Source: Oscillospiraceae bacterium (GTDB taxonomy: Bacteria; Bacillota; Clostridia; Oscillospirales; Oscillospiraceae). From it: DNA of 64,000 bases. This document shows, piece by piece, positions 6,134 through 63,604 of this stretch. A model generated the notes under the pieces. The model saw nothing but the letters and a program-made list of their open reading frames with translations, was not told the DNA's origin and searched no databases. Every line of letters starts with the position of its first letter. Within the stretch, counting starts at the first letter, position 1. The position numbers and the translations under genes were made by a program. The stretch covers positions 1-64,000 of the forward strand of contig CADBWQ010000004.1 of the NCBI GenBank assembly GCA_902798545.1, in the 5' to 3' direction.

Positions 6134-6940
6134 TCATGCCCACTCCCGGCTCTGGGGTTTGCCGGATGTGCTCTGTTCTCCGCGGACATAGCTGACGACG
6201 ACCCGGCGGTTTGGCTCAGTGCCGGTGGAGGCCGTAGTCACACCTTCATAATTCTGCAGCGCTGTATGGATCACGTGACGCTCATAGGAGTTCATCGGTT
6301 CCAATGCCATGCTGCGCTTATACTTGATTGCCTTTTCGGCCATCTTTTCGGCAAGCTTTGTGAGGGATTCCTCCCGTTTGGCACGGTAGTTCTCCGCATC
6401 GACACTAACGCGCAGATGCTTCTCGTTGCCATGATTGACCGCATAATTGGTGAGGTGCTGGATCGCATCCAGGGTCTCTCCTCTGCGTCCGATCACAGCG
6501 CCCATTCCGGGGCCGGCAAGGTCTACCATAATCCCGCCGCCTTCTCTTTCGCTCATGTTGATCTCTGCGTTGATCCCCATGTGCTCGAGCAGCCCGCTCA
6601 GGAAGCTGCGGACCGCGGTATAGTCTGCCGACTCATCGGCCGGAGCCGCTGCGGGTGTGATTGCAGGCTTTTTCTCTTCTGTTCCCTCGGTTTTTACCGC
6701 GGGCTTTTCTGCCGGCTTTTTCTCCTCAACAGGTGCCTTCGCAGCAGGGGTCGGAGCCTCATCCTCAGTCTCCCAGCTCACGCGTACCTTCGCCGGCTGA
6801 GCTCCGATTCCGAGAAATCCCGGTTTCGCGCGCTCGACAAGTTCAACCGAGACATCATCGCGCTCCATGCCCAGTTCGCGGAGCGCAGCAGCGATGGCTT
6901 CTTCCTCGGTCTTGCCGGTTTTTTCCAGATAGTTGATCAT
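6134..6940 (-). CDS. khpB: RNA-binding protein KhpB (Jag/EloR)
   Basis: This cytoplasmic RNA-binding protein is linked in Firmicutes to cell elongation and sRNA binding, usually with KhpA. It is 268 residues long. A Jag_N domain covers about residues 1-55. A Lys/Glu/Pro/Ala-rich linker runs from about 57 to 105. A KH-II domain has the GRRG loop near 152-155, and a C-terminal R3H domain is marked by the R-x4-H-type segment SYERHVIHTAL. Its ATG overlaps the yidC stop by four bases, so the two are translationally coupled in the classical yidC-jag arrangement. Confidence 0.95.
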   Translation of the reverse strand: MINYLEKTGKTEEEAIAAALRELGMERDDVSVELVERAKPGFLGIGAQPAKVRVSWETEDEAPTPAAKAPVEEKKPAEKPAVKTEGTEEKKPAITPAAAPADESADYTAVRSFLSGLLEHMGINAEINMSEREGGGIMVDLAGPGMGAVIGRRGETLDAIQHLTNYAVNHGNEKHLRVSVDAENYRAKREESLTKLAEKMAEKAIKYKRSMALEPMNSYERHVIHTALQNYEGVTTASTGTEPNRRVVVSYVRGEQSTSGKPQSREWA

Positions 6941-8331
6941 GCGTTTTCTCCGTTCTCATTTGCAGCAGGCTCAACAGCAGCGGCTTCGGCAGCTTCCGCG
7001 ACGGCTTCAACGGTTTCCGTCACTTCCGCGGTCACATTTTCTGCCGCCTGCATCACATCGTCCTCAACGGTTTCATCGATGGATGCGGCATCCTCAGACT
7101 CCAGAGCAGCCGCCAATGTTGCGGCTTCTGCTGCCTCGGGATTTGAGAAGCGATCGGGTACATAGGCACGGCCTCTGGCATAGCGGCGGTTTCCCACCTG
7201 AGAAGCAGGCTTCTCCGCCCCCTTGATGCCGAGGCGCTCGCGGCGGGCGGCTCGATCCGCACGCTCCAGCGCCGCTTTGCGCTCATCGCTCTTCTGTTTT
7301 TCGTTGGCCTGAATTTTCTTTTTGCTGGTATTGCTGTTCTTTTCCGTTTTTCCCTCTGCACGAAGGCGTTCGGTCTCTTCCCGCTGTTTCTCAATCTCCC
7401 ACTCTCTGGCATCTCTGGCGGCTTTTCGCTCCGCATCCTCCGCATCCAGCTGTTTTTTAAAGACTTTGGTCAGGATGTAATCACGCGCAATGCCGAAAAC
7501 GGAGTTGGCAATCCAGTAGATACCCATGGCGGCAGGCATAACAAAGCAGATCCAGACGCTCATCAGGGGCATCATCAGATTCATGCTCTTCATGGTGGCC
7601 GCGCTTTGGGCGTCCTGTGCGGTGGGCGGATTCGTCGCCGAGCTGATCTTCATGGAAACCCAGGAAAGAAACGCCGAGATAAACGGAATCAGGAACAGGC
7701 CCAACGCCGGGAGCCATACGTGCACGTCGCTCCAGTCGGTGTCCACAAAGAAGTTCCACTTCGGCTGATCACCGAGATTCAGTCCCAGGAAGGAGAAGTC
7801 GACATTGATAAAATTCGGATCGATTTTCCCCGCAAGTCCGCTCTGAACCAGGTCCCAGTTGTCATGGGCCAGCTTGGTCAGCTTGATTTCCGCATAGGCA
7901 TCCGCCCGGGCAGTCACTTCGTAGAGGCCATGCTCTACGAAAAACTCCTGCAGCGTGGTGACAAATTCATCCGTGACAAACATCATTCTGGTCAGGGGCT
8001 GACGGATGACGCTGTACAGGGCAATCAGGATCGGGAAGGGGATCAGGGACCACAGGCAGCCGGACATCGGATTGACGCCCTCCTCGCGGTAGAGCTTCTG
8101 CATCTCTGCGTTCAGCTTCTGGGGATTCCCTTCATGCCTGCGCTGGATTTCCTGAATCTTCGGCTGCAGGCGCGTGGAACGCATCATACTCTTTTTGCTC
8201 TTTGCCATGAAGGGTGCCAGGATCAGGTTGACCGCGAGAGCGAAAAAGATAATGGCCCAGCCATAGCTTCCGGTCAGGTTATACAGCCAGATCATCAGCC
8301 ATGCAAAGGGTTTTGTAATGGTCTTCCACAT
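6937..8331 (-). CDS. yidC: Membrane protein insertase YidC
   Basis: YidC inserts and folds membrane proteins with or without SecYEG. The 464-residue product has the 60KD_IMP core in about the first 285 residues. TM1 is preceded by WLYNLTGSYGWAII, followed by a coiled cytoplasmic hairpin (QPKIQEIQRRHEGNPQKLN) and EGVNPMSGC before TM2, with later TM segments near residues 200-280. A highly charged Lys/Glu/Arg-rich coiled tail of about 175 residues follows, longer than in B. subtilis SpoIIIJ. There is no lipobox signal. It lies between yidD and khpB. A second, very different YidC-like domain occurs at 56282-59047. Confidence 0.95.
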   Translation of the reverse strand: MWKTITKPFAWLMIWLYNLTGSYGWAIIFFALAVNLILAPFMAKSKKSMMRSTRLQPKIQEIQRRHEGNPQKLNAEMQKLYREEGVNPMSGCLWSLIPFPILIALYSVIRQPLTRMMFVTDEFVTTLQEFFVEHGLYEVTARADAYAEIKLTKLAHDNWDLVQSGLAGKIDPNFINVDFSFLGLNLGDQPKWNFFVDTDWSDVHVWLPALGLFLIPFISAFLSWVSMKISSATNPPTAQDAQSAATMKSMNLMMPLMSVWICFVMPAAMGIYWIANSVFGIARDYILTKVFKKQLDAEDAERKAARDAREWEIEKQREETERLRAEGKTEKNSNTSKKKIQANEKQKSDERKAALERADRAARRERLGIKGAEKPASQVGNRRYARGRAYVPDRFSNPEAAEAATLAAALESEDAASIDETVEDDVMQAAENVTAEVTETVEAVAEAAEAAAVEPAANENGENA

Positions 8332-42504: not shown

Positions 42505-42569
42505 AAGAAAGCTTATGGTCTCATACTTTAGTATTTATGTATTGTACTCTTTATAGACAAGGTATGGAT

Positions 42570-46099: not shown

Positions 46100-46127
46100 C
46101 CTCAAACTGATTTATGGTGGTTTGTTC

Positions 46128-47009
46128 ATGTTACGCTTTACAATAGACAATTGCGGCGATCCCGTATCTCCCGATGAGGTTAAACAATGTCAGGTTGCCA
46201 TGCTGTCTGCACTTGCAGACTTCTGTGAAGAGAACGGGCTGCGTTACTATCTGGACGGAGGGTCCCTTTTGGGGGCTGTACGCCATAAGGGATTTATCCC
46301 CTGGGATGATGATATCGATCTTATTCTCCCTCATCCCGACTGTATACGACTTCAGCAGCTCAGCGGCGGGCAGCTCGGCAGATATCTCATCCGCCCGCCT
46401 GAAATTGACGGCTCTTTTTTTGCAGAGAGCTGGAAGATGTATGACCCGGAATACATCATAGAAAGTGATCTTGACGGCGCCAGTTCCAAGAAGTATTATT
46501 ATCCTGTTTTTTTGGATCTCTTCCCGATGGAGGGATTGCCGAACTCCGATGCTGAAACCGCCCGATGGTATCGCAGAACGGTTTTTCTCCGAAAACTTCT
46601 GTACTGTCTTACCGGTTCCTTCTGGCACGGACGGACCTTGCCAAAAAAAATCGCACACGGACTGATGCGGCCTGTGGTATCGATTATCGGTGGGGAGAGG
46701 CTGTTTTTATTTCTGCAGGCCTCGAAAGAGCATCTGGCATTCGATCAGGCGGACTATGTTGGCAACATGTCCGGGCCGGTACACACCGTCGACAGCAAAG
46801 TGCCAAAAGCGGAATACCTGAAATCCGTTTCTCTCCCATTTGAAGGACGGGATTACTCTGCACCGGGCAACTACGCTCAGTATCTGACCCAGCTCTATGG
46901 TCCGGACTGCATGACAACACTTCCTCCGCCGGAGCAAAGGAAGACAAACCATAATTTTAAAGTTTACCGATATAAGGAAACCCATCCCGCTGAGGAGGAT
47001 GATTTATGA
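46128..47009 (+). CDS. LicD-family phosphotransferase (second copy)
   Basis: In this 293-residue protein the core motif reads RYYLDGGSLLGAVRHKGFIP followed by WDDDIDLILPHPD, again with the metal-binding Asp residues. The middle has KYYYPVFLDLFPMEGLP, and the end has YGPDCMTTLPPPEQRKTNHN, as in canonical LicD. It differs enough from the first copy (42570) to suggest another acceptor or donor. The ATG at 46128 is preferred to a TTG at 46122. It overlaps the dehydrogenase gene by four bases. Confidence 0.92.
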   Translation: MLRFTIDNCGDPVSPDEVKQCQVAMLSALADFCEENGLRYYLDGGSLLGAVRHKGFIPWDDDIDLILPHPDCIRLQQLSGGQLGRYLIRPPEIDGSFFAESWKMYDPEYIIESDLDGASSKKYYYPVFLDLFPMEGLPNSDAETARWYRRTVFLRKLLYCLTGSFWHGRTLPKKIAHGLMRPVVSIIGGERLFLFLQASKEHLAFDQADYVGNMSGPVHTVDSKVPKAEYLKSVSLPFEGRDYSAPGNYAQYLTQLYGPDCMTTLPPPEQRKTNHNFKVYRYKETHPAEEDDL

Positions 47010-48073: not shown

Positions 48074-48790
48074 ATGAATGCTTTTATGCTGATGATGGGC
48101 GGCAGTGGAACCCGCTTCGGCGCAGAACGTCCGAAGCAGTTTACACTGGTTCATGATCGTCCGCTTTTCTCCTACATTCTGGAAAAAGCCAATCAAATTC
48201 CGGAAATCAATTATATTACCGTTGTCTCACATCACTCCTGGTTGGACTATGTTCAGGAATGGTGCCGGAAGGTTGTGACCAATGTTCCGTTTCATGTTGC
48301 GGGTGGTGGAGACACCCGTTCTGAATCTGTATTCAACGGTCTTCATTCTCTCGAGGAAGTTCTGTCACCGGCAGATGTTGTCCTGATTCATGATGCGACA
48401 CATCCTTACCTTGACCCGGATGCGGTTCGTCGGGTAGCAGAGGCCGCTTCCAAGTATGGCGGTGCAACCGTAGCGAGCAAAAATTATGACACCGTCTATC
48501 GAACAGACCAGGAAGGCTTTTTGGAAAAGGTTGAGCCACGTGAACTGATCGTCGCCGGAGCATCTCCTGAGGCTTTTCGCTATGGTGATATTCTGGATAT
48601 TTATCAGAATTCAACCCCGGAAGAACTGCAGGCAATGACCTCTGCCGGGGCGATCGCGCTTGCGCACGACATTCCCATGCAGGTGATCCCGACATCCGTT
48701 CTGAACTTGAAGATAACATATCCCCCCGATATGGAGCTTTTCCTGCAGCTTGCAGACCACTACTTTTTCCCCGATCATTCAATGGATTAA
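48074..48790 (+). CDS. TarI/IspD-family cytidylyltransferase
   Basis: In this 238-residue protein the CTP-binding N-terminus is MMGGSGTRFGAERPKQFTLV. VVLIHDATHPYLDPDAVRR carries the Asp that holds metal, and KNYDTVYRTDQEGFLEKVEP matches the family's substrate loop. IspD acts in isoprenoid synthesis, TarI in making CDP-ribitol. Because this gene lies between a polyol dehydrogenase and GatZ/TagF-like genes, a polyol phosphate is the more likely substrate. It starts seven bases after the dehydrogenase. Confidence 0.88.
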   Translation: MNAFMLMMGGSGTRFGAERPKQFTLVHDRPLFSYILEKANQIPEINYITVVSHHSWLDYVQEWCRKVVTNVPFHVAGGGDTRSESVFNGLHSLEEVLSPADVVLIHDATHPYLDPDAVRRVAEAASKYGGATVASKNYDTVYRTDQEGFLEKVEPRELIVAGASPEAFRYGDILDIYQNSTPEELQAMTSAGAIALAHDIPMQVIPTSVLNLKITYPPDMELFLQLADHYFFPDHSMD

Positions 48791-48812
48791 AGACTGGAGG
48801 ACGATTTTTATT

Positions 48813-50147
48813 ATGCAGAATCCGCTGAAAGAAATGGTGATTAAGCGTCAGAATGGCATTCACTGCGGTATTCCTTCCTTTTGCTGCGCAAATAAGATTG
48901 TTATTGAGGCAATACTCAGCCAGGCGTTGCGATTTGGTGATACTTCTTTGATTGAAGCGACGTCCAATCAGGTGAATCAGGAAGGCGGCTACATGGCCAT
49001 GACGCCGCAGGATTTCACCGATTACGTTTATCATATTGCAGACAAGCTTGGCATCGCACGGGAGAAAATCTACCTGGGCGGCGATCATATGGGTCCTCTC
49101 CCCTGGATGGATCTGCCTGCCGCTGAAGCAATGGAACGCGCGAAGGTGCTTGTCACCATGTGTGTGAAGGCCGGATATAAGAAAATCCACCTTGACACAA
49201 GCATGCGTCTGGGCGATGACTCCCGAACGGAGCGTCTCTCGGATGAGGTAATTGCCGAGCGCGGAGCCATTCTTTATCAGGCATGTGAAGAAGCCTGGCT
49301 GGAGATGAAGAAAACGAATCCGGATGAGATGCATCCGGTATTCGTCATCGGCAGCGAGGTTCCCGTTCCCGGCGGAATCAATGAAGAAGAAGCCGAGGGA
49401 ATGGCCCTGACAAAACCGGAGGATTTCGAGAACACACTTCTGGCCTACAAGAAAAAGTTCCGTGAACTGGGCCTGGAAAGTGCATGGGAGCACATCATCG
49501 CAATTGTCGTGCAGCCCGGCGTGGAATTTGGTGACGACACGATTCATAGATATAACCGTTCTGAGGCGGCCGCTCTCTGCAACACATTGAAAAAGTATCC
49601 CGATATTGTTTTCGAGGGGCATTCGACCGATTACCAGTCTCCGGTCAGTCTGAAGGAGATGGTAGAAGACGGGATCGCCATCATTAAGGTCGGACCGGCC
49701 CTTACATTTGCACTTCGTGAAGCGCTCTTCTCACTCTCTATGATAGAGGATGAACTCATTCCGGATCCGGAGAAGCGCTCCCATTTCCGCGATGTACTGG
49801 AAGCTGAGATGGTTCAGGATCCCCGGCATTGGATAAAATACTATTCCGGCACAGAGGATGAGAAAGCCATAAAGCGGAAATACAGTTTCTCAGACCGCAG
49901 CCGCTATTATATGTCGCGCCCGACTGTTGAGAATGCACGCAGGAAGCTCTTTGAGAACATCGACACACTGGATATTCCTATGAGTATGCTGAAGCAGTAT
50001 ATGCCCATGCAATACATCAAGGTGAGGGACGGCGTGCTCCCCTTGAAAGCCAGAGAACTTGTCAAAGACAACGTGGTCACTCTGGTGGAAGACTACAATT
50101 ATGCAGTCAAATACAACTATATGATCAGCGGTGTGTTCATTCGATAA
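48813..50147 (+). CDS. GatZ/KbaZ-family protein (tagatose-bisphosphate aldolase subunit-like)
   Basis: This 444-residue protein has a TIM-barrel layout matching the GatZ/KbaZ family: LIEATSNQVNQEGGYMAMTP, KIYLGGDHMGPLPWMD, KIHLDTSMRLGDD, and DIVFEGHSTDYQSP. In tagatose metabolism it stabilises the GatY/KbaY aldolase, but no GatY is near. As I recall, some family members epimerise fructose 6-phosphate to tagatose 6-phosphate, which would fit the adjacent dehydrogenase. The ATG at 48813 follows GGAGG, at a longer than usual distance (about 13 bases). Confidence 0.85.
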   Translation: MQNPLKEMVIKRQNGIHCGIPSFCCANKIVIEAILSQALRFGDTSLIEATSNQVNQEGGYMAMTPQDFTDYVYHIADKLGIAREKIYLGGDHMGPLPWMDLPAAEAMERAKVLVTMCVKAGYKKIHLDTSMRLGDDSRTERLSDEVIAERGAILYQACEEAWLEMKKTNPDEMHPVFVIGSEVPVPGGINEEEAEGMALTKPEDFENTLLAYKKKFRELGLESAWEHIIAIVVQPGVEFGDDTIHRYNRSEAAALCNTLKKYPDIVFEGHSTDYQSPVSLKEMVEDGIAIIKVGPALTFALREALFSLSMIEDELIPDPEKRSHFRDVLEAEMVQDPRHWIKYYSGTEDEKAIKRKYSFSDRSRYYMSRPTVENARRKLFENIDTLDIPMSMLKQYMPMQYIKVRDGVLPLKARELVKDNVVTLVEDYNYAVKYNYMISGVFIR

Positions 50148-50178: not shown

Positions 50179-51915
50179 ATGCTAAAGCTTCAAGCCATAC
50201 AGTGGGAACGGATTTATCTCAAACCGGTTATCACTGCAGATAATAATGAATACGAAGATACAGATCTTCATTTCTATCTCGTCAATTCATTCGACGAAGT
50301 CCGGGCAGAATTCAGTATTCTTGATGTGAAGGATAACACCGCATCTCTGCTCTTGAATATAACGAATGACGGCACAAATCAGTGTATCGAAAATGGTAAT
50401 TATCGTATCATTCTGTCCTCAGGCTGTTCCGTCATCGGTTCTGTACTATACGATGGTGGGAATGAAACACTGTCCCTGTGGAATAATCATTTCTTGTATG
50501 GCAATAATTCCGGCTGTTACACCGTCACATTCATGACGGATCAGTTCAAGGATGATCCTGAGTTAAATATTATTATTCTGGATACTTCTCGAAAAGGGGC
50601 CATCTTATCACAGCAAGCAAAACAAGCGGTTAATCAAAGCTTTCAGAAGAGGAAGCAAAAACTGATTAATCATCTGAAAAAAACGCGCAGTACTCTTCGG
50701 AGACTACTGTATCGTCTTATGCGATCAAAGACAAATAATACTATTTTATTCTTGTCAGAAATGGATGACCATCTTGCTCCTAATATGTCCGCCATATATG
50801 AACGGATGAAGGAACGCGGGTTAGATAAAGAATTCAAGATATCTTTTTTTCTTGAGCGCAAAACCGAAGAGCACTACTCCGTTCGCAGCGCAATAAAAAG
50901 GACCTTGGCCGTCTGTAAAGCCGACATAATCTTAATCGACGACCATGTTTCATTCTTTGATAATTTTAAACTTGCTGATAATGTCAAATTAATCCAGATC
51001 TGGCACGCAGGAGCGGGATTTAAAGGTGTCGGATACAGTCGCTGGGGGCATTATGGCTGCCCGCCTCCCTTTTCCTGTCACAGGCAATATACTTACTGTA
51101 TCTCCGGGTCCAAATCTATCAATCATTTCTTCTCTGAGCAGTTCGGTATTCTGGATGAGCAGATCATTCCCACCGGCATGCCCAGAATGGATCAGTATAT
51201 GGATCCCGCCCGGAGGAAGGAAGTAACCGATCAGCTTTATCAGAACTACCCGTTCTTTAAAGGGAAACAGATCATTCTGTTTGCACCGACCTATCGTGGC
51301 CAAGGAAGAAAAACCGCGTATTATCCTTTCAACCTGATTGATTTTCAAGCTCTATATCAGTATTGTACAGAACAAGACGCTGTTGTGCTGTTCAAAATGC
51401 ATCCCTGGGTCTCTGATCCTGTGCCAATTCCTGAGGAACTACATGACCGTCTCTTTGATATGAAGAGTGATGCAAACATCAATGACCTGTTCTACATTAC
51501 GGATCTACTGATTACCGACTATTCCTCCAGCATGTATGAATTCTTGTTGATGAACAAACCAATGTTGCTTTTCCCGTTTGATAAAAACCAATATTCTGTA
51601 TCACGGGGTTTTCATCGAGATTATGACAGTAACGTTCCCGGTAAAATCTGCATGTCCTTTGATGAATTGATGACAGCACTTCGAAATAGAGACTATGAAT
51701 ATGAGAAAGTGTCCTCATTTCTCTCCTACTATTTCGATCAGGTTGATACTTCCAATTGCGACCGAGTAATTGACTGGTTAATCCTGGATCAGCTGCCAGC
51801 AGAGTATAAGACTGCCCTGACCAGCAAAAGAGAGCACATCAACAATGTTAGAAATCTGATTATTCATCGTTCTAATTCTTCACCTTTGAACGATGCTGTT
51901 GTTACACATAATTAA
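50179..51915 (+). CDS. CDP-polyol phosphotransferase, TagF-like (first copy)
   Basis: In this 578-residue protein an N-terminal beta-rich domain (1-150) is followed by the CDP-glycerol glycerophosphotransferase fold. LIQIWHAGAGFKGVGYSRW carries the catalytic His, RQYTYCISGSKSINHFF and ILFAPTYRGQGRKTAYY follow, and LLITDYSSSMYEFLLMNKP holds the CDP-binding residues. TagF-type enzymes polymerise polyol phosphates from a CDP donor. It starts 31 bases after the GatZ-like gene that may help make the donor. The base composition becomes more AT-rich here. Confidence 0.92.
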   Translation: MLKLQAIQWERIYLKPVITADNNEYEDTDLHFYLVNSFDEVRAEFSILDVKDNTASLLLNITNDGTNQCIENGNYRIILSSGCSVIGSVLYDGGNETLSLWNNHFLYGNNSGCYTVTFMTDQFKDDPELNIIILDTSRKGAILSQQAKQAVNQSFQKRKQKLINHLKKTRSTLRRLLYRLMRSKTNNTILFLSEMDDHLAPNMSAIYERMKERGLDKEFKISFFLERKTEEHYSVRSAIKRTLAVCKADIILIDDHVSFFDNFKLADNVKLIQIWHAGAGFKGVGYSRWGHYGCPPPFSCHRQYTYCISGSKSINHFFSEQFGILDEQIIPTGMPRMDQYMDPARRKEVTDQLYQNYPFFKGKQIILFAPTYRGQGRKTAYYPFNLIDFQALYQYCTEQDAVVLFKMHPWVSDPVPIPEELHDRLFDMKSDANINDLFYITDLLITDYSSSMYEFLLMNKPMLLFPFDKNQYSVSRGFHRDYDSNVPGKICMSFDELMTALRNRDYEYEKVSSFLSYYFDQVDTSNCDRVIDWLILDQLPAEYKTALTSKREHINNVRNLIIHRSNSSPLNDAVVTHN

Positions 51916-54980: not shown

Positions 54981-56264
54981 ATGCTACGTCTTCTGGCTTC
55001 TGGTCCGATTTTGTATATCGATCCCGGTACCGGGAGTATGTTGTTCAGTATTCTGATCGGCGTTCTCGGTGCTGCTTATTATTTCTTCCGTAGCGCCTTT
55101 ATTAAGCTGAAGTATTCTGTATCCAACAACAAAACAGAGGTGAAGAGCGCCTCCCGTCTGGACTATGCGATCTTTTCTGATGACAAACGGTATTGGAATA
55201 TCTTTAAACCGATCTGTGAAGAATTTGAAGCCCGTCAGGTTGAGCTCACTTATTTCACCGCCTCAGAAGATGATCCTGTGTTAAATCAGGATTTCCAATA
55301 TGTCCACGCTGAATACCTTGGTCCCGGAAACAGAGCTTTCACCCGCCTGAACATGTTAAACGCGGTAATTGTTCTCTCAACAACACCCAGTCTGGATGTC
55401 TATCAGTGGAAGCGTTCAAAGGATGCTCAATTCTATGTCCATATTGCTCATATGCCGAATGATATCTCTGCTTATGAAATGTTTGGACTTGATCATTACG
55501 ACGCGATTCTTCTCTCCGGTGAATACCAGATTCGTCAGATTCGAGAACTGGAGCGTCTGCGAAATTTGCCAGAGAAAGAGTGTGTCCTGGTCGGGCTTCC
55601 CTATATGGATGATCTGAAAAGGCAGTTGGATGCTGCTCCTCCGAAACATTCCGAAAGAAAGACCGTTTTATTGGCGCCCTCCTGGGGAAAAAACGGAATA
55701 CTGCGGAAATATGGTTCAAAGATGCTCGACGCCCTGATCGGTACAGGATATGATATTGTGGTCCGTCCGCACCCTCAGTCCTGGTCTTCGGAAAAAAGTA
55801 TGATGGAAGCACTGATGGAAAAATATCCGGATTCAGAACACTTTCACTGGAACCGAGACACCTCCAATTTTGAGGTGCTGCGTTGTTCCGATGTTCTGAT
55901 CTCTGATTTTTCCGGTGTAATCTTTGACTACACTCTCGTTTTCGATAAACCGGTAATCTATACTGATATCTCTGCATTTGACAAATCTGCATGGGATGCT
56001 GCCTGGATTGACGAGGAACTGTGGACCTTTCAGGTATTGCCCAAATTGGGTGAGCAACTGGAAGATGACAGGCTCGATCACATCAAAGAAGTCATCGACC
56101 GAGTTACGGATGAACCGAAATATCAGATTGCCCGGAATACCGCACGCGCTGAAACCTGGGTTTATGCCGGAGAAGGTGCCCGCCGGACAGCTGATTACCT
56201 GATTGCCAAACACACCGCACTGACAGGCGCTTTCTCCGGCCAGGAAGAGTCTGATCTCAAGTAA
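54981..56264 (+). CDS. CDP-polyol phosphotransferase, TagB/TagF-like (second copy)
   Basis: In this 427-residue protein an N-terminal hydrophobic helix (SMLFSILIGVLGAAYYFFRS) is followed by the glycerophosphotransferase fold: VHIAHMPNDISAYEMFGLDH with the catalytic His, RKTVLLAPSWGKNGILRKYG, and DVLISDFSGVIFDYTLVFDK. It lacks the N-terminal domain of the first copy and is nearer to primases of the TagB type, which add the first unit. GGAGG precedes the ATG. The YidC-sulfatase gene follows after 17 bases, so the pair is probably made together. Confidence 0.9.
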   Translation: MLRLLASGPILYIDPGTGSMLFSILIGVLGAAYYFFRSAFIKLKYSVSNNKTEVKSASRLDYAIFSDDKRYWNIFKPICEEFEARQVELTYFTASEDDPVLNQDFQYVHAEYLGPGNRAFTRLNMLNAVIVLSTTPSLDVYQWKRSKDAQFYVHIAHMPNDISAYEMFGLDHYDAILLSGEYQIRQIRELERLRNLPEKECVLVGLPYMDDLKRQLDAAPPKHSERKTVLLAPSWGKNGILRKYGSKMLDALIGTGYDIVVRPHPQSWSSEKSMMEALMEKYPDSEHFHWNRDTSNFEVLRCSDVLISDFSGVIFDYTLVFDKPVIYTDISAFDKSAWDAAWIDEELWTFQVLPKLGEQLEDDRLDHIKEVIDRVTDEPKYQIARNTARAETWVYAGEGARRTADYLIAKHTALTGAFSGQEESDLK

Positions 56265-56281
56265 AGGAAGATAGTGATACA

Positions 56282-59047
56282 ATGTCTGTTCTGACAGCTC
56301 TCTATACTTTGTTGATCCGTCCCCTGGAGCTGGGATTTGAAGTTGTTTATGTGGTTGTCAACCGTGTCATCAACAATCCCGGTCTTTCCATCATCGCCCT
56401 CAGCCTTGCAATGAACTTTCTGGTACTTCCTCTTTATCGCAGGGCCGATGCGATGCAAGAGGAAGAACGCGCGCTGGAAGCCGGAATGGAAAAATGGGTT
56501 ACTCATATTCGCAGGACCTTTACCGGTGACAAACGGTTCATGATTCTTCAGGAGTATTATCGCCAGAATCATTATAAACCGACATATGCCTTGAGGGGTT
56601 CCTTCTCCCTTCTTCTCGAGATCCCTTTCTTCATTGCTGCTTACCGTTTTCTTTCCGGCCTGGAGCTTCTACATGGAGTATCCTTCGGCCCCATCATAGA
56701 TTTGGGTGCCCCGGATGCTCTGATCTGTATCGGTGAATTACGGGTCAATCTGCTGCCCATTCTGATGACCCTGATCAATGTTGTTTCCGGTGCAGTCTAT
56801 ACCAAAGGGATGCCTCTGAAATCGAAGGTGCAGTTGTACGCAATGGCACTGGTCTTTCTGGTTTTTCTGTATTCTTCTCCTTCCGGTCTGGTATTCTACT
56901 GGACATTGAACAATATTTTTTCGCTGGTCAAGAACCTGTTTTATAAGCTGCGAAACCCTCGGGCGGTTCTCTATGTTCTTGCCTCTGCTTTCGGGTTAGG
57001 GCTGATCGCTGTTTTCGGCTTTCTCTATCCCGTTAAACTGAAACCGAAACTGTTCTTTGTAGCTCTCGGAGGTATGCTGCAGCTTCCTCTTCTGCTGCGG
57101 TTGATCCCCTTTCACTTCAGCTTTGCTGGTCGTCGTATAGATCCCGGTTCTGATAACCGGCTGTTCATCATTTCTGCGCTCATAGATACCGTTCTGGTCG
57201 GTGTCATGATTCCTTCGGCGGTGATCTCTTCCTCTCCGGCAGAGTTTATCAATGATGTCTCTCACTTCTCTTCCCCGTTGTCCTATACCCTCTATTCCGG
57301 GCTTATCGCACTGGGAACATTTATGCTCTGGGCCGGTCTGTTCTATTATCTGATGACACCTCAGAGTCGGTCTATCTTCAGTAAGATCTACTTTTCTCTC
57401 TCCTGTGTTTTTCTTTTTGATTATCTGGTGTATGGAAAAGGTCAGAGTAATCTCTCTGCGACGCTTCAGTATGAGAAACAACCCTGGTTTCCACGAGATC
57501 TCCAGCTCCTGAATTTATTTGTTGTCTTCGTTCTGGTTGCTGTCATCTATTACTGTGCTGTACGTCTTCCCAATCTCACCAGGGTGCTGTCTGTATCAGC
57601 GCTCCTTGCAGTCTGCGGAATGAGTGTTCTGAACATCAGAAATACAACTGTTACTCTCCGTTCTTCTCTTTCATATATCAAAGAACAGTCTGACACTGCT
57701 GCGAAAGTGCAGGAAAACGGTCTCATCCATCTCAGCAGGAATGGGAAGAATGTTGTCTTTCTGATGCTTGATCGTGCAATGGGCAGTTACACGCCTTTTA
57801 TTATGGATGAGAAGCCTGAACTGATTGAGAAATTTGATGGATTTACGGCTTATCATAATACTATTTCCTACGGTCGCATTACGATCTATGGTGCCCCTGC
57901 AATGATGGCAGGATATGAATACACTCCTGCTGCCATCAATGCCCGGTCAGAGGACACGTTTCTGCAGAAGCACAATGAATCCTCTCTTGTCATGCCGGTT
58001 CTGTTTGATAGCAATGGTTTTCAGGTAACTCTCTGCGATCCCCCGCTCGCTGGTCTTGAGTATGTCCCGAACCTGACCATTTATGATGATTATCCGAACA
58101 TCAAGACTTATATGATCAACAAGCGTCTTCAACTTGTTGATAACGATATCTCTGATTTTACGGAGCCAATCCGAAAACGTAATTTTTTCTTTTTCGGTCT
58201 GACGAAAGTTGCTCCTCTGCTCTTCCAGAGTTCCCTCTATAATGCGGGTTTATATAACGAGGCCATTCCATCTGATTCTCCGGAGCGTATGACAGAGCAG
58301 ATTCGATCCGGCTTGTCCACGGCCAAAGGCCTTTCCAAAATGTTTATGAACACCTATTCTGTCATGCACGAACTGAAATCTCTCACGCGAATTGATGACA
58401 CCAGTGAAAACCACTTTTTCTTTATGTGCAATGAGATGACCCACGAGGTGAACATGCTCCAAGAGCCGGATTATGTTCCAAGCCTGGTCGTGGACAATAC
58501 CCCCTTTGACGACGATCTGTCCACACGTTACAATATCAACGGGCGCCATATGAGGATGACCACACCGGGACAAGTTGCTCATTATGACTCGAATATGTCT
58601 GCCATGATTCAGCTAGCAGCATGGTTTGATTTTCTCCGTGAAGAGGGCGTCTATGATAATACGCGCATCATTTTGGTGTCGGATCATGGAACAAGTGCCG
58701 GGCAGTTTGACGCACTTGAAATTGATGATGTGTTCGATGCCCAGGAGGTAGCAGCGCTTCTGATGGTAAAAGATTTTGATGCCACAGGCTTCTCTTTCTC
58801 AGAAGAATTTATGACCAACGCGGATGCTCCTCTCATTGCCATGAAAGATCTGATCGAAAATCCTGTAAACCCCTTCACAGGGAAAGAACTGAATGATGAG
58901 GAAAAATACGCCCATGACCAGGAGGTTCTCCACTGTAAGATTGCCATGCCGGAGTTCAGAGACGGTTTTACCTACCCTGACGGTGACTGGTATTCGGTCC
59001 ATGGTAATATTTATGAGAAATCCAATTGGACACACATTGAAAAATAA
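56282..59047 (+). CDS. YidC/Oxa1-like domain fused to a sulfatase-like phosphotransferase domain
   Basis: In this 921-residue protein residues about 25-225 look like YidC: GLSIIALSLAMNFLVLPLYR at the first core helix, a charged hairpin, QEYYRQNHYKPTYALRGSFS before LLLEIPFFIAAYRFLSG, and a final pair near LYSSPSGLVFYWTLNNIFSL. Six or more further TM helices follow (230-480). The C-terminal 430 residues form an alkaline-phosphatase/sulfatase fold: VVFLMLDRAMGSYTPF (metal Asp), GRITIYGAPAMMAGYEYTP (likely Thr nucleophile) and LVSDHGTSAGQF (metal Asp-His). This recalls LtaS or OpgB-type phosphoglycerol transferases. The fusion is very unusual; see findings. Confidence 0.85.
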   Translation: MSVLTALYTLLIRPLELGFEVVYVVVNRVINNPGLSIIALSLAMNFLVLPLYRRADAMQEEERALEAGMEKWVTHIRRTFTGDKRFMILQEYYRQNHYKPTYALRGSFSLLLEIPFFIAAYRFLSGLELLHGVSFGPIIDLGAPDALICIGELRVNLLPILMTLINVVSGAVYTKGMPLKSKVQLYAMALVFLVFLYSSPSGLVFYWTLNNIFSLVKNLFYKLRNPRAVLYVLASAFGLGLIAVFGFLYPVKLKPKLFFVALGGMLQLPLLLRLIPFHFSFAGRRIDPGSDNRLFIISALIDTVLVGVMIPSAVISSSPAEFINDVSHFSSPLSYTLYSGLIALGTFMLWAGLFYYLMTPQSRSIFSKIYFSLSCVFLFDYLVYGKGQSNLSATLQYEKQPWFPRDLQLLNLFVVFVLVAVIYYCAVRLPNLTRVLSVSALLAVCGMSVLNIRNTTVTLRSSLSYIKEQSDTAAKVQENGLIHLSRNGKNVVFLMLDRAMGSYTPFIMDEKPELIEKFDGFTAYHNTISYGRITIYGAPAMMAGYEYTPAAINARSEDTFLQKHNESSLVMPVLFDSNGFQVTLCDPPLAGLEYVPNLTIYDDYPNIKTYMINKRLQLVDNDISDFTEPIRKRNFFFFGLTKVAPLLFQSSLYNAGLYNEAIPSDSPERMTEQIRSGLSTAKGLSKMFMNTYSVMHELKSLTRIDDTSENHFFFMCNEMTHEVNMLQEPDYVPSLVVDNTPFDDDLSTRYNINGRHMRMTTPGQVAHYDSNMSAMIQLAAWFDFLREEGVYDNTRIILVSDHGTSAGQFDALEIDDVFDAQEVAALLMVKDFDATGFSFSEEFMTNADAPLIAMKDLIENPVNPFTGKELNDEEKYAHDQEVLHCKIAMPEFRDGFTYPDGDWYSVHGNIYEKSNWTHIEK

Positions 59048-59069
59048 CTGATACTTTGGAGGAATGACT

Positions 59070-59966
59070 GTGTCTCTGACAAGAAAGCAATTTGACATTC
59101 TGGAAAAGCTGATTGACGAAGAAAAGCCTCTGTCACAGCGTCAGCTCGAAGAGTCTACGCCTTATTCTCTGGGAACCGTAAACCGCACAATCAGAGAACT
59201 GACAGAAATGGGATACTTACGTTCCGGTCAGATTACCAAAGCAGGTTTGGATTCTCTTGAGCCATATCGGGTAAAACGAGCAATCATCGTTGCGGCTGGC
59301 TTCGGCTCCAGAATGGTACCCCTGACTTTTAACACACCAAAACCACTGGTTCGTGTCCACGGCGTCCGGATTATTGACGGCCTGATTGACTCCTGCCTGG
59401 AAGCGGGGATCACCGAGATCTATATTGTCCGCGGTTATCTGGCCGAACAGTTTGATCAGCTGCTTTATAAATATCCTATGCTGAAGTTTCTGGAGAATCC
59501 GATCTATAATGAGGCCAATAACATCAGTTCTGTGATGGTTGCCCGTTACCTGCTCTCCAATTCCTATGTCTTTGAGGCAGATCTTCTCATTACAAATCAT
59601 GACCTGATAAAGCGATATCATTACTGCTCCAATTTCCTTGGAATAAAAGTCTCCCGGACAGATGACTGGTGCGTCCGTGTCAAAGATGGGGTCATTCTTG
59701 AAGAGAAAGTTGGCGGTGAGGGAGAAGATATCTGGCAGCTGGTTGGTATTTCTTACTGGAGTGAAGCCGACGGGCACAGACTGGCTCAGGATATTCAGGA
59801 TGTTTATCAGTCTCCCGGAGGCAAAGAGCGCTACTGGGAACAGGTCCCGCTGGTCTATAAGCAGGAACATTATAGCGTAGAAATACGGAACTGCCTGCAG
59901 GAGGATATCATTGAAATTGATACGTTTAATGAACTGAAAGCGATCGACCGAACCTACGATGTATAA
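59070..59966 (+). CDS. Winged-helix LicC/PntC-like cytidylyltransferase
   Basis: In this 298-residue protein residues 1-65 are a winged-helix DNA-binding module (QRQLEESTPYSLGTVNRTIR). The rest is a nucleotidyltransferase of the LicC family: AIIVAAGFGSRMVPLTFNTP with the CTP loop, KPLVRVHGVRIIDGLIDSCL, NPIYNEANNISSVMVARYLL, and ADLLITNHDLI. LicC makes CDP-choline; the related PntC makes CMP-2-aminoethylphosphonate. GGAGG lies one base before an ATG at 59064 but seven bases before the GTG at 59070, so the GTG is chosen. The importer genes follow. Confidence 0.88.
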   Translation: MSLTRKQFDILEKLIDEEKPLSQRQLEESTPYSLGTVNRTIRELTEMGYLRSGQITKAGLDSLEPYRVKRAIIVAAGFGSRMVPLTFNTPKPLVRVHGVRIIDGLIDSCLEAGITEIYIVRGYLAEQFDQLLYKYPMLKFLENPIYNEANNISSVMVARYLLSNSYVFEADLLITNHDLIKRYHYCSNFLGIKVSRTDDWCVRVKDGVILEEKVGGEGEDIWQLVGISYWSEADGHRLAQDIQDVYQSPGGKERYWEQVPLVYKQEHYSVEIRNCLQEDIIEIDTFNELKAIDRTYDV

Positions 59967-60117: not shown

Positions 60118-61140
60118 ATGAAACACATAATGGCTTTTGTACTCTCTGCCCTTTTGCTTATGGCTTCCGGCTTTTCTGCCTTTGCAGAACCGGCTGTTCC
60201 TGTTGCACCTGAAAGGACGGCAGAACTGAACACCGACAGCAATAAAGTTGTGATCTACTCCGGTGCCGAAGAGTATCGCAATGAATATTTTAAGCAGAGA
60301 CTGTCTGAAGAGTTTCCTGATTATGATATTGTCATTGAATACATGCCCACGGGGAATCTGGCTGCCAAATTGGCCGCAGAAGGCACCGATACGGATATGG
60401 ACATCTTCTATGATCTCGACTTCAGCTATGCGGGGTTGGTTGAACAGTACCTCGCAGATGTTTCCGATTACGATCAGTCGATCTATGTTGACGACTGCAA
60501 AGTAGCAAGTGGAAAGTACCTGGCCGCTACCAGAAACGGTGGGGCAATTATTGTTAATCCTTCGGTCCTGGAAGCAAAAGGTCTCGATCTCCCGACTTCC
60601 TATCAGGATCTGTTAAAACCGGAATACAAAGGCTTGGTTTCCATGCCGGATCCAAAATCATCCGGAACAGGTTATATGTTTGTGAAGAGTCTCGTGAATG
60701 TCTGGGGTGAAGAGGAAGCTTTTGATTATTTTGAAGCACTCTCTGAGAATATTCTTCAGTTTACTTCATCCGGCTCTGGTCCGGTAAACGCGCTGATACA
60801 GGGAGAAGCTGCAATTGGCCTCGGAATGACGGCGCAGGCTGTTACTGCGATCAATGAAGGCGCAGAACTGGAGATTCTTTTCTTTGAGGAAGGCTCTCCG
60901 TACTCACTTTATGGCTATGCAATGCCGGAAGGCAAGGAAGTGCGCAAGGCTGTCAAAGATGTTTTTGATTTCTTCTATACAACGCTTGTCCTTGAAGATA
61001 AGGCTCTTTTCTATCCTGAGCAGGTCTTTATCGGACAAACGAATGAGATTGAGAATTATCCGACAGATATCGCATATGCAGACATGAGCAACAATACGAC
61101 CGCCGAAAAGACAAGACTTTTAGAGAACTGGGAATTCTGA
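60118..61140 (+). CDS. ABC importer solute-binding protein (Fe3+/aminoethylphosphonate type)
   Basis: In this 340-residue protein the signal peptide MKHIMAFVLSALLLMASGFS ends near FSAFAEP, without a lipobox Cys. The mature part is a type II binding fold: KVVIYSGAEEYRNEYF, YMPTGNLAAKLAAEG, IIVNPSVLEAKGLDLPTSYQ and MPDPKSSGTGYMF. This is the family that binds ferric ions, spermidine or 2-aminoethylphosphonate. Lacking an anchor, it would be free or held another way. The LicC/PntC-like neighbour favours an amino-phosphonate or choline-like substrate; this is inference. Confidence 0.85.
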   Translation: MKHIMAFVLSALLLMASGFSAFAEPAVPVAPERTAELNTDSNKVVIYSGAEEYRNEYFKQRLSEEFPDYDIVIEYMPTGNLAAKLAAEGTDTDMDIFYDLDFSYAGLVEQYLADVSDYDQSIYVDDCKVASGKYLAATRNGGAIIVNPSVLEAKGLDLPTSYQDLLKPEYKGLVSMPDPKSSGTGYMFVKSLVNVWGEEEAFDYFEALSENILQFTSSGSGPVNALIQGEAAIGLGMTAQAVTAINEGAELEILFFEEGSPYSLYGYAMPEGKEVRKAVKDVFDFFYTTLVLEDKALFYPEQVFIGQTNEIENYPTDIAYADMSNNTTAEKTRLLENWEF

Positions 61141-61229: not shown

Positions 61230-62015
61230 ATGGATAAAATAATCGTCGAAAACCTTTCAAAAGCCTTTGGTTCATCGGGTGTTCTTCATGATCTCAGTTT
61301 CAGTATCCGCGAAGGTGAGTTTCTTTCCATTCTAGGTCCATCGGGCTGCGGTAAAACAACCATCCTGAGAATTCTGATTGGCTTGGAATCGCCCGACAGC
61401 GGGGCAATATATAAGGACGGCAAGGAAATCACCCGCCTTCCGCCTTATCAGAGAAACATGGGAATTGTTTTCCAGAACTATGCGCTCTTTGAAAATATGT
61501 CCGTCCTGCAAAATGTGGAATATGCACTTTTGAAAAGTTCTTCCACCAAGGCGGAGTACAATCCGAGCACCGCACGCTCCAAGGCAAAACTGATGCTTGA
61601 TATTGTCGGGTTAACCGACCATCTCTCCAAGAAGCCACGGGAACTTTCCGGCGGCCAGCAGCAGCGTGTAGCAATTGCCCGTACGCTCGCACTGAACCCG
61701 GATGTGATTCTGTTTGACGAGCCGATGTCCGCATTGGATGTTGATACCAGACTCTCTCTCCGCAGCGAGCTGAAGGAGCTTCAGAAGCATTTCGGCACAA
61801 CCATGGTCTATATCACACATGATCAGGAAGAGGCCTTTGCGCTTTCCGACCGTATTATGGTGATGGACGCCGGGGTCATTCATCAGCTTGATACACCGCA
61901 CAATCTGATTCACCACCCTGCTGATGATTACGTAAAATGCTTTGTTATCAAGAACATTGACATTAAGATTAACAGCCTGATTCAGTATGCCCAGCGCAGA
62001 GAGGAGTTCTTATGA
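61230..62015 (+). CDS. ABC importer ATPase (PotA/FbpC-like)
   Basis: In this 261-residue protein Walker A is GPSGCGKTT, the signature is LSGGQQQRVAIARTLALNPD, and Walker B is VILFDEPMSALD, followed by VYITHDQEEAFALSDRIMVM. It lacks the C-terminal TOBE regulatory domain of longer PotA/FbpC proteins. It overlaps the permease gene by four bases, so the two are translationally coupled. Confidence 0.95.
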   Translation: MDKIIVENLSKAFGSSGVLHDLSFSIREGEFLSILGPSGCGKTTILRILIGLESPDSGAIYKDGKEITRLPPYQRNMGIVFQNYALFENMSVLQNVEYALLKSSSTKAEYNPSTARSKAKLMLDIVGLTDHLSKKPRELSGGQQQRVAIARTLALNPDVILFDEPMSALDVDTRLSLRSELKELQKHFGTTMVYITHDQEEAFALSDRIMVMDAGVIHQLDTPHNLIHHPADDYVKCFVIKNIDIKINSLIQYAQRREEFL

Positions 62016-63604
62016 GGTCCGGCGGTCTCTCAGTGAGAAAATGGTCTCCAGCGGCTTCTTTAAAACTATTGCTTTGCTGTTTCTGGCTCTTTTCCATCAT
62101 ACTCCCTTTATTGCGGATGCTCTCCACTATCGCTACTGTGGATGTTGCTTCCGTCATCACCGCCAGAAAGTTTTCCCGAGCTTTTTCTCATTCCATTGCC
62201 GCTTCAACCGTTTCTACAATGATTTCGGTTGTCCTCGCCGGCATTCTCTCCTGGTGCGTCGCCCGTACCAACATCAGACATAAAACGATTTTGAATACGC
62301 TCATCACCGTGCCTATGCTCATTCCTTCCATCTCTCACGGGATGGGACTGATCATCATTCTGGGTGCCAACGGCTGGCTGGCGAGACTCCTGGGGCTGAC
62401 CGGTGGAATCTATGGCTTCTGGGGAATTGTTATTGGGTCTGTCATGTACTCCTTCCCTGTTGCCTATCTGATGCTGTATGATGTTCTTCTGTATGAAGAT
62501 GCCACCCCTTATGAAGCTGCGGATGTAATGGGGTTGAAAGCTGCAGACAGGTTTTTTGCCATTACTTTTCCCTATCTACGCAAGCCTCTAATTTCTGTGG
62601 TGTTTGCTGCTTTTACGATGATTATTACCGACTACGGTGTCCCGCTTATGGTCGGGGGAAAATATACGACACTTCCTGTCATGATGTATCAGGACGTCAT
62701 CGGCATGTTGGATTTCGGCAAGGGGTCTGTTATTGGCATGATTCTGTTGATTCCGGCGCTGATTGCCTGTATTCTGGATATGGCAAACAGAGATAAGGGA
62801 AATGCAGCTTTTATCGGCAAGCCCTACACCCCAAAAGATAATCGGTTGAGAGATACCTGTGCCATTCTGATCATAGGTTTTCTCATAGTTCTGATTTTTC
62901 TCCCCATCGGTTCTTTTGCAGTTCTCGGATTCATTAACAAGTATCCGATTGATATGACCCTGTCTCTCAGTAATATTACGCAGGCGGTTCACATGGGTGC
63001 GTTAAAGTACCTCTGCAATTCCCTCGTAATCGCATCGGTTGTCTCTGTCTTTGGAACCGCACTTGCCGTTTTTAACGCGTATATGACTGCACGCAATAAA
63101 ACGAAAATGAGCTATGTCCTGCACCTTATGTCTATCACCTCACTGGCAATTCCAGGCATCGTTCTTGGCCTGTCCTATGTCATGTTCTTCAAAAAATCAC
63201 CGATTTATGGTACATTTGCCATTTTATTTCTCGTTAATTCAATGCACTTCTTCGCTTCTCCCTACCTGATGGCTTACAACACCTTTGGTAAAATTAACGA
63301 GAATCTGGAAGATGTCGGCTCCACACTCGGTATTCCTCACTTTCTGATCATCCGTGATGTCCTTCTCCCCCAAGCTGCCGGAACCATTCTGGAAATGGTG
63401 AGTTATTTTTTTGTAAACTGTATGATGACGATCTCCGCGGTCTCTTTCCTTTCGAATGTAAACACGAAGCCGGTCGCCCTAATGATCACACAGTTTGAAG
63501 GCCAGATGCAGCTCGAGTGCGCGGCGTTCGTTTCTCTGTTGATTCTGGTTGTGAATATTATTATGAAGTATGCAATCTTCCTGATAAAGAAAAAGCTTTC
63601 CTGA
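62012..63604 (+). CDS. ABC importer permease, two fused modules (FbpB-like)
   Basis: In this 530-residue protein two BPD_transp_1 modules of about six TM helices each are joined. Each has the EAA loop: DATPYEAADVMGLKAADRFF in the first half and ENLEDVGSTLGIPHFLIIRD in the second. This is the layout of ferric iron, thiamine and aminoethylphosphonate permeases. With the binding protein and ATPase it makes a complete importer. No terminator-like hairpin follows at once; a structured region begins at 63636. Confidence 0.93.
   Translation: MRSGGLSVRKWSPAASLKLLLCCFWLFSIILPLLRMLSTIATVDVASVITARKFSRAFSHSIAASTVSTMISVVLAGILSWCVARTNIRHKTILNTLITVPMLIPSISHGMGLIIILGANGWLARLLGLTGGIYGFWGIVIGSVMYSFPVAYLMLYDVLLYEDATPYEAADVMGLKAADRFFAITFPYLRKPLISVVFAAFTMIITDYGVPLMVGGKYTTLPVMMYQDVIGMLDFGKGSVIGMILLIPALIACILDMANRDKGNAAFIGKPYTPKDNRLRDTCAILIIGFLIVLIFLPIGSFAVLGFINKYPIDMTLSLSNITQAVHMGALKYLCNSLVIASVVSVFGTALAVFNAYMTARNKTKMSYVLHLMSITSLAIPGIVLGLSYVMFFKKSPIYGTFAILFLVNSMHFFASPYLMAYNTFGKINENLEDVGSTLGIPHFLIIRDVLLPQAAGTILEMVSYFFVNCMMTISAVSFLSNVNTKPVALMITQFEGQMQLECAAFVSLLILVVNIIMKYAIFLIKKKLS

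What the first reader, a model, noticed from the sequence alone, without database searches (positions are those of the whole stretch)
56282..59047. YidC/Oxa1-like insertase domain fused to a sulfatase-like phosphotransferase in a teichoic-acid-type locus
Seen: the N-terminal 225 residues follow the YidC core pattern, further TM helices come next, and the C-terminal half has the metal and nucleophile segments of the alkaline phosphatase/sulfatase superfamily, all in one uninterrupted frame. Known: YidC inserts proteins; LtaS and OpgB-like enzymes move phosphoglycerol groups outside the cell. I know of no characterised enzyme joining the two. Inference: the YidC-like part may bend the membrane or present a lipid-linked polymer or lipid donor to the extracellular catalytic domain, forming a new kind of surface-polymer phosphotransferase. 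It is cotranscribed with a TagB-like enzyme and a CTP transferase of the LicC family. A canonical YidC exists at 6937-8331, so this one is free to have another role.
Basis: partly seen in the sequence, partly recalled or inferred. Interest (0 to 1): 0.9.

Follow-up and report, generated by a model that had tools for sequence, protein, structure and literature searches.

The report
YidC-fused surface phosphotransferase working with TagB
Some gut and rumen bacteria have joined the protein-insertion module YidC to an enzyme that appears to attach small phosphorus groups to the cell surface; the module seems to be part of an undescribed decoration pathway and may carry a lipid-bound group across the membrane.

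Summary

New: the fusion is half of a conserved cassette. A TagB/TagF-like gene lies in 63 of 79 loci, and elsewhere in all 9 tested genomes of loci lacking it. 37 of 79 loci carry CDP-headgroup supply genes (choline-kinase-like, CobD-like, phosphonate, nucleotidyltransferase). A second fusion, YidC joined to the TagB-like enzyme, has a separate sulfatase-family gene in 8 of 12 loci.

Best reading: TagB-like enzyme, YidC module and phosphotransferase form one pathway moving phospho- or phosphono-headgroups from CDP carriers to the surface; the YidC part passes a lipid-linked intermediate across the membrane. Shared pathway: well supported. Lipid transfer: inferred. The missing groove arginine is not evidence; the genome's housekeeping YidC lacks it too.

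The parts
56282..59047 (+). YidC-phosphotransferase fusion protein, 921 aa (type I fusion)
56282..56947 (+). residues 1-222: Oxa1/YidC-fold module; position of the groove Arg (E. coli R366) is N45 (codon 56414-56416)
56957..57718 (+). residues 226-479: seven further helices long enough to span the membrane in the model (226-248, 253-274, 292-317, 333-357, 360-383, 405-428, 430-479); the part from 283 on resembles PbgA
57719..59044 (+). residues 480-921: alkaline-phosphatase-superfamily catalytic domain (D497, T534, H721, D801, H802 invariant)
54981..56264 (+). TagB/TagF-like CDP-headgroup transferase with N-terminal YIDPGTGSML motif and helix; partner gene
   Evidence: PF04464 47.7 bits; TagF 3l7k best Foldseek match E 3.5e-13; PDB profile match to Cps3D and TarL; motif invariant in 53
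59064..59966 (+). winged-helix (MarR-like) + NTP_transferase protein, LicC/PntC-like cytidylyltransferase candidate
60118..61140 (+). solute-binding protein; best NCBIfam match PhnS2 (putative 2-aminoethylphosphonate importer), below its cut-off
61230..62015 (+). ABC ATPase; best NCBIfam match PhnT2, below its cut-off
62012..63604 (+). two-domain ABC permease; best NCBIfam match PhnU2, below its cut-off
50179..51915 (+). TarL-like Glyphos_transf polymerase (surface-polymer backbone locus)
48074..48790 (+). IspD-family cytidylyltransferase (TarI-like by context)
46122..47009 (+). LicD-family protein (a second one at 42537-43481)
6937..8331 (-). housekeeping YidC beside rnpA and jag; also has Asn at the groove position

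Best explanation
The protein is the membrane and outer-face half of a two-gene headgroup-decoration machine. Step 1 (gene content shown, activity inferred): a small phosphorus-bearing headgroup (choline-type, CobD-like-derived amino-alcohol phosphate, aminoethyl- or hydroxyethylphosphonate) is made or imported and activated by a LicC/PntC-like nucleotidyltransferase. Step 2 (inferred): the TagB/TagF-like enzyme on the cytoplasmic side moves it from the CDP/CMP carrier onto a membrane lipid, diacylglycerol-type or polyprenyl-type. Step 3 (inferred): the YidC-fold module lets the polar head of that lipid pass through its hydrophilic groove to the outer leaflet and hands it over. Step 4 (inferred from fold and conserved active site): the extracytoplasmic catalytic domain moves the headgroup to a surface glycan by LtaS/EptA chemistry with a threonyl intermediate. 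In the second architecture a YidC module is fused to the TagB-like enzyme instead, with a phosphotransferase often encoded nearby.
For: YidC fold and PbgA/LtaS/EptA-like rest. Seven predicted spanning helices after the cytoplasmic end of the YidC core put the catalytic domain outside (topology inferred). TagB-like gene in 63 of 79 type I loci, within 150 bp of a fusion in 61 of those 63; 10 of the 16 loci without it were tested, and all 9 genomes they lie in have one elsewhere, one as a fragment at a contig end. Reciprocal: 11 of 11 regions fetched because of a standalone TagB-like gene hold a YidC-phosphotransferase fusion. Swapped fusion YidC-TagB with a sulfatase-family gene in 8 of 12 loci and headgroup supply genes in 8 of 12. 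Supply genes in 37 of 79 type I loci; PEP mutase, phosphonopyruvate decarboxylase and PhnW-AepZ above cut-offs in L031. The YidC part is better conserved than the catalytic part (mean pair identity 0.64 against 0.47 in 96 proteins; 0.56 against 0.43 in 15 not chosen by YidC patterns). E. coli YidC scrambled phospholipids in proteoliposomes (PMC10491306, passages read).
Against: No lipid intermediate, lipid transfer or catalytic activity is shown anywhere. The fold does not separate transferases from hydrolases: sulfatases and phosphonate hydrolases score as high as LtaP or EptC. 4 of 12 YidC-TagB loci (L167, L168, L204, L207) show no sulfatase-family gene in the stretch read. 42 of 79 type I loci show no supply gene in the stretch held, only some of them short contigs. 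A YidC-less relative of the phosphotransferase exists (L006/L224, no TagB or YidC within the 19 kb read), so the chemistry may not need YidC. In 4 of 34 fusion-bearing genomes no separate housekeeping YidC was found (G455, G467: type I only; G466, G474: type I and type II); these may be gaps in assemblies, but there a fused module could be the insertase. The loss of the groove arginine cannot be used: the housekeeping YidC of this genome and 14 of 30 others in fusion-bearing genomes lack K/R there as well (some rows align poorly), and the YidC-TagB fusions keep Lys in 7 of 7 looked at.
Confidence: 0.5

Rival explanations
1. The YidC module is an in-cis insertase or chaperone: it helps fold or insert the large fused membrane enzyme and its partner, and has no part in the chemistry.
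For: Membrane-protein insertion is the known job of the fold; the module keeps the complete core fold; 4 of 34 fusion-bearing genomes showed no separate housekeeping YidC.
Against: Extra copies of the fusion carry their own module (18 of 79 loci hold two or more YidC domains) although a separate housekeeping YidC was found in 30 of 34 genomes; the module is the best conserved part; a YidC module is also fused to a TagB-like enzyme, a fold that is globular apart from an N-terminal helix in the model of the window's TagB.
Confidence: 0.2
2. Scaffold only: the module is a docking platform that holds the TagB-like enzyme against the phosphotransferase and thins the membrane locally, while another transporter flips the lipid.
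For: Swapped fusions and tight gene linkage show that the three parts belong together and say nothing by themselves about transport.
Against: A scaffold would not obviously need the polar residues of the core helices that are kept in 95% or more of 96 proteins (N45, T163, N166, N210, N211, S214, K217). Whether another flippase gene accompanies the cassettes was not searched.
Confidence: 0.2
3. It is an ordinary lipoteichoic-acid-type synthase or phosphoglycerol transferase using phosphatidylglycerol, with a neutral YidC add-on; TagB and the nucleotidyltransferase belong to the wall-polymer backbone.
For: The window locus also holds TarL-like, IspD-like and LicD genes.
Against: The TagB gene and supply genes travel with the fusion across otherwise different loci, while relatives of the window's TarL-like protein clustered in only 2 of 79 loci (flanks of about 8 kb).
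Confidence: 0.1

Closest known systems
YidC/Oxa1/Alb3 insertases
   Same: Same core fold and Pfam domain
   Different: Fused to a phosphotransferase that by helix count faces outward; Asn/Ser/Gln/Thr instead of Lys/Arg at the groove position in all 96 proteins of one set and all 15 of another (the sets share at least the window), a change shared by some housekeeping YidC of these bacteria; in a tree with 25 of the 96 it is one clade with a very long stem
LtaS / EptA-MCR / PbgA-YejM family (alkaline phosphatase superfamily membrane enzymes)
   Same: Membrane helices followed by the same catalytic fold; metal and nucleophile positions kept
   Different: Preceded by a YidC module and two extra helices; sequence too far for the Pfam Sulfatase cut-off; consistently linked to a TagB-like partner
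Lic (phosphocholine) and Pnt (phosphonyl tailoring) pathways
   Same: CDP/CMP activation by LicC/PntC-like enzymes, with kinase, EamA-type transporter or PepM/Ppd/PhnW genes beside the cassette in part of the loci
   Different: Uses a TagB-like enzyme and the YidC-phosphotransferase; the steps after PntC are called enigmatic in PMC6697681 (abstract and passages read)
TagB/TagF/TarL CDP-alcohol phosphotransferases
   Same: Pfam PF04464 and TagF fold for the partner gene
   Different: Short, with its own N-terminal membrane motif; fused to YidC in the second architecture

Membership tests
YidC/Oxa1/Alb3 insertase | 60KD_IMP domain and five-helix core fold | tested here: met
YidC/Oxa1/Alb3 insertase | Conserved basic residue in the groove (called strictly conserved in PMC8920935, abstract start seen) | tested here: not met
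   N in 94 and S in 2 of 96; N/S/Q/T in 15 of 15. Not decisive: the genome's housekeeping YidC also has N, though the 30 best-scoring YidC of the class all have K/R
YidC/Oxa1/Alb3 insertase | Membrane-protein insertion activity | not testable with these tools
   needs complementation of a YidC-depletion strain
LtaS/EptA/PbgA-type membrane phosphotransferase | Membrane helices plus extracytoplasmic alkaline-phosphatase-superfamily fold | tested here: met
LtaS/EptA/PbgA-type membrane phosphotransferase | Metal ligands and Thr nucleophile | tested here: met
   D497, T534, H721, D801, H802 in 96 of 96 and 15 of 15; T534 assigned by position, not by a solved complex
LtaS/EptA/PbgA-type membrane phosphotransferase | Transfer of a headgroup from a phospholipid | not testable with these tools
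   no assay
Lic/Pnt headgroup decoration pathway | LicC/PntC-like nucleotidyltransferase beside the system | tested here: met
   window 59064-59966; 32 of 79 loci
Lic/Pnt headgroup decoration pathway | LicD as final transferase | tested here: inconclusive
   two LicD genes lie 9-13 kb upstream in the window; LicD was not searched in the other loci
TagB/TagF (Glyphos_transf), partner gene | PF04464 and TagF fold with conserved His | tested here: met
   47.7 bits over 22.1; 3l7k E 3.5e-13; H154, H157, H264 invariant in 53

The most novel reading that the evidence does not exclude
A YidC/Oxa1-fold module has been taken out of protein insertion and made into a dedicated lipid-headgroup translocase of a surface-decoration pathway: it moves the lipid-linked phospho- or phosphono-headgroup made by a TagB-like enzyme across the membrane and feeds it to a fused LtaS/EptA-type transferase. 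It would supply the unknown late steps of phosphonyl tailoring and a new kind of flippase.
Probability: 0.42. Interest if true: 0.93.

Novelty: new variant of a known kind. Interest (0 to 1): 0.8.

Why it matters
If true, the insertase fold, already reported to scramble lipids in vitro, has a lineage whose natural cargo is lipid rather than protein, and the missing steps between CMP-phosphonate or CDP-choline and the decorated surface of some gut and rumen bacteria get named genes. It makes the question of whether Oxa1-fold proteins are physiological lipid scramblases testable by genetics in culturable strains such as Schwartzia succinivorans DSM 10502 (L031) and Clostridium punense DSM 28650 (L036). 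It would also correct annotation: such genes score as YidC in Pfam and may be labelled insertases.

Tried and rejected
Groove-arginine argument. At first N45 in place of R366 looked like proof of lost insertase function: the 30 best-scoring YidC of the class all have K/R. A control on 30 housekeeping YidC from fusion-bearing genomes gave 16 with K/R and 14 without (N, Q, Y, E, a few rows poorly aligned), and the window's own housekeeping YidC has N. PMC8920935 (passages read) also says the charge is not essential in E. coli. Argument dropped.

Independent recruitment of YidC into the two fusion types. The quick tree (25 of 96 type I, 12 type II, 46 housekeeping) put them apart, but holding them together gave a better likelihood and p-AU 0.603. 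One or two origins: cannot tell.

Headgroup type against fusion phylogeny: 13 changes among 45 labelled proteins against 23.5 in shuffles; the other 51 of 96 were left out. Clustered but switching often; copies in one locus share a label by construction, so this is weak.

The first neighbour count with a greedy ORF caller (58 of 79) undercounted TagB, because antisense ORFs masked it in GC-rich loci; it was replaced by an HMM survey (63 of 79).

Mobile origin: no phage or plasmid record held a match over 80% of the protein; the listed hits cover residues 34-227 only (5 plasmid rows not listed). PADLOC: nothing for the fusion or TagB.

Spread: a phylum-wide sample found the fusion in 3 of 398 genomes, the window's own among them. 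Of 36 same-genus genomes 2 hold it at full length.

Full report

2. Family. Three same-genus proteins gave alignment A1, and a scan of genome contigs with it gave 176 stretches that encode a relative; the best 80 became 78 loci. From 110 ORF hits, which include the window and copies of it, I kept 98 full-length proteins, 96 after removing two identical ones. Partial and contig-edge ORFs were dropped. Record titles name Clostridia, Schwartzia (L031), Erysipelotrichaceae/Solobacterium, Eggerthellaceae/Coriobacteriaceae and 'Chloroflexi' MAGs; MAG labels were not checked. D497, T534, H721, D801 and H802 are invariant in 96 of 96. The scan patterns lay in the YidC part, so its conservation could be a selection effect. 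In 15 proteins not selected that way (14 plus the window) the YidC part is still the best conserved: mean pair identity 0.56, against 0.43 for the catalytic part and 0.25 for the helices between. The fusion is sporadic: 3 of 398 genomes across the phylum, the window's own included.

3. Neighbours. In 79 loci (window plus 78) the HMM survey found a TagB-like gene in 63, an NTP transferase of the LicC kind in 32, choline-kinase-like in 12, EamA in 9, CobD-like in 9, PEP mutase in 8, Ppd in 6 and PhnW in 6. In 61 of the 63 the TagB domain is within 150 bp of a fusion, upstream in 42 and downstream in 19. Of the 16 loci without it, 10 (in 9 genomes) were tested and all 9 genomes have one elsewhere, in G867 only as a fragment at a contig end. 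The other 6 are short or cut contigs and were not tested. In the opposite direction, 11 regions fetched because of a standalone TagB-like match all hold at least one complete fusion (14 in all). All 12 genomes with a listed standalone TagB-like match have 2 or more PF02096 matches, against 65 of 393 counted by eye; hypergeometric 1.7e-10, ignoring relatedness.

4. What the supply genes say. In L031 the genes beside the fusion, on the other strand, are phosphonopyruvate decarboxylase, PEP mutase with a cytidylyltransferase domain and 2-aminoethylphosphonate aminotransferase, all three above NCBIfam cut-offs, then a LicC-like gene; the TagB gene there lies about 5.6 kb on. In L025 they are a nucleotidyltransferase, a choline-kinase-family kinase and an EamA transporter (the kinase's best NCBIfam hit is a pre-guanitoxin N-oxide kinase below cut-off, so the substrate is unsure). 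In L057 a nucleotidyltransferase is fused to a CobD-like PLP enzyme (below that model's cut-off). In the window, the three ABC subunits downstream all have putative aminoethylphosphonate-importer models as best hits, all below cut-offs. Any supply gene: 37 of 79. The common factor is a small phosphorus-bearing headgroup that could be activated as a CDP or CMP conjugate. PMC6697681 (passages read) describes PntC and calls the following steps unknown; YidC, sulfatase and TagB do not occur in its text.

5. The swapped fusion. PF02096 searches in 34 fusion-bearing genomes showed a further class of frames of 638-741 aa. They are YidC joined to a TagB-like domain (frames read; Pfam 60KD_IMP and Glyphos_transf both above cut-off in L157). 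Twelve such loci were read: seven found there and five among 393 class genomes. A sulfatase-family gene is present in 8 of 12 (L164, L165, L166, L169, L170, L205, L206, L208); Pfam supports L164, L165, L166 and L162 (the same place as L169) above cut-off and L170 below it, and the other three rest on HMMs built here. Headgroup genes are present in 8 of 12: L164 and L165 with the same kind of importer and winged-helix nucleotidyltransferase as the window, L166, L169, and Ppd, PEP mutase, LicC-like and Fe-ADH genes (hydroxyethyl- or aminoethylphosphonate) in L167, L168, L204 and L207. So a YidC module is fused either to the outer enzyme or to the inner one, and in most loci the other enzyme is encoded nearby. 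That is the strongest argument that the three act together.

6. Housekeeping YidC. A separate one was found in 30 of the 34 fusion-bearing genomes; G455 and G467 showed only the type I fusion, G466 and G474 only type I and type II. The groove position separates nothing: type I N/S/Q/T, type II Lys in 7 of 7, housekeeping K/R in 16 of 30.

7. Mechanism. Shown: architecture, linkage, conserved active site, conserved polar core of the YidC module (N45, T163, N166, N210, N211, S214, K217 at 95% or more). Inferred: sidedness, TagB acting on a lipid, lipid passage through the YidC groove, transfer to a surface glycan. Precedent: E. coli YidC and other Oxa1-family proteins scramble phospholipids in proteoliposomes (PMC10491306, preprint, passages read). 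LtaS- and EptA-type enzymes use phospholipid donors (general knowledge). A TagB-like enzyme that makes the donor, a groove that passes it and an enzyme that spends it would close the pathway. The main rival is a fused chaperone.

8. Literature. Searches for YidC with sulfatase, teichoic acid, capsule, glycerophosphotransferase, domain fusion, aminoethylphosphonate, phosphonate/phosphocholine, and for the Pfam names listed no paper on either fusion, judged by titles and abstract starts of the rows shown; only open-licence PMC papers are held. Novelty is therefore 'not found in the held library'.

9. Verdict. Real, recurrent though sporadic, uncharacterised as far as found, with a coherent pathway context. 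I do not file it as a YidC insertase (groove feature not met, activity untested) but as an Oxa1-fold module in an LtaS/EptA-like phosphotransferase system.

Noticed in passing
window 6937-8331 (-): The housekeeping YidC (beside rnpA and jag) has Asn at the groove position where E. coli has R366; 14 of 30 housekeeping YidC from fusion-bearing genomes lack K/R there.
   Followed up: partly
L035, L057, L073 and 15 other loci: Two to four complete or partial YidC-phosphotransferase fusions in one locus in 18 of 79 loci; genome G463 has 12 PF02096 matches.
   Followed up: partly
window 59064-59966; L164 15181-16068; L165 2080-2967: LicC-like nucleotidyltransferases with an N-terminal MarR-type winged helix (Pfam in the window and L165; L164 by eye), perhaps self-regulating.
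   Followed up: no
L164 8424-8927, L166 2416-2982: A small signal-peptidase-like gene (Pfam Peptidase_S26 in L164; L166 similar by eye) lies directly before the YidC-TagB fusion.
   Followed up: no
window 48750-50147: A GatZ/KbaZ-like tagatose-bisphosphate aldolase subunit inside the surface-polymer locus.
   Followed up: no
window 39645-42308 (-): Large YfhO-family membrane protein next to the polymer locus.
   Followed up: no
L057 2000-3811: Nucleotidyltransferase fused to a CobD-like PLP enzyme, a possible one-protein route from an amino-acid phosphate to a CDP-amino-alcohol.
   Followed up: partly
G466 and G474 (L162/L169, L163/L170): Two assemblies in which the only YidC domains found sit in the two fusion types; missing contigs or a fused module doing the housekeeping job.
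   Followed up: no
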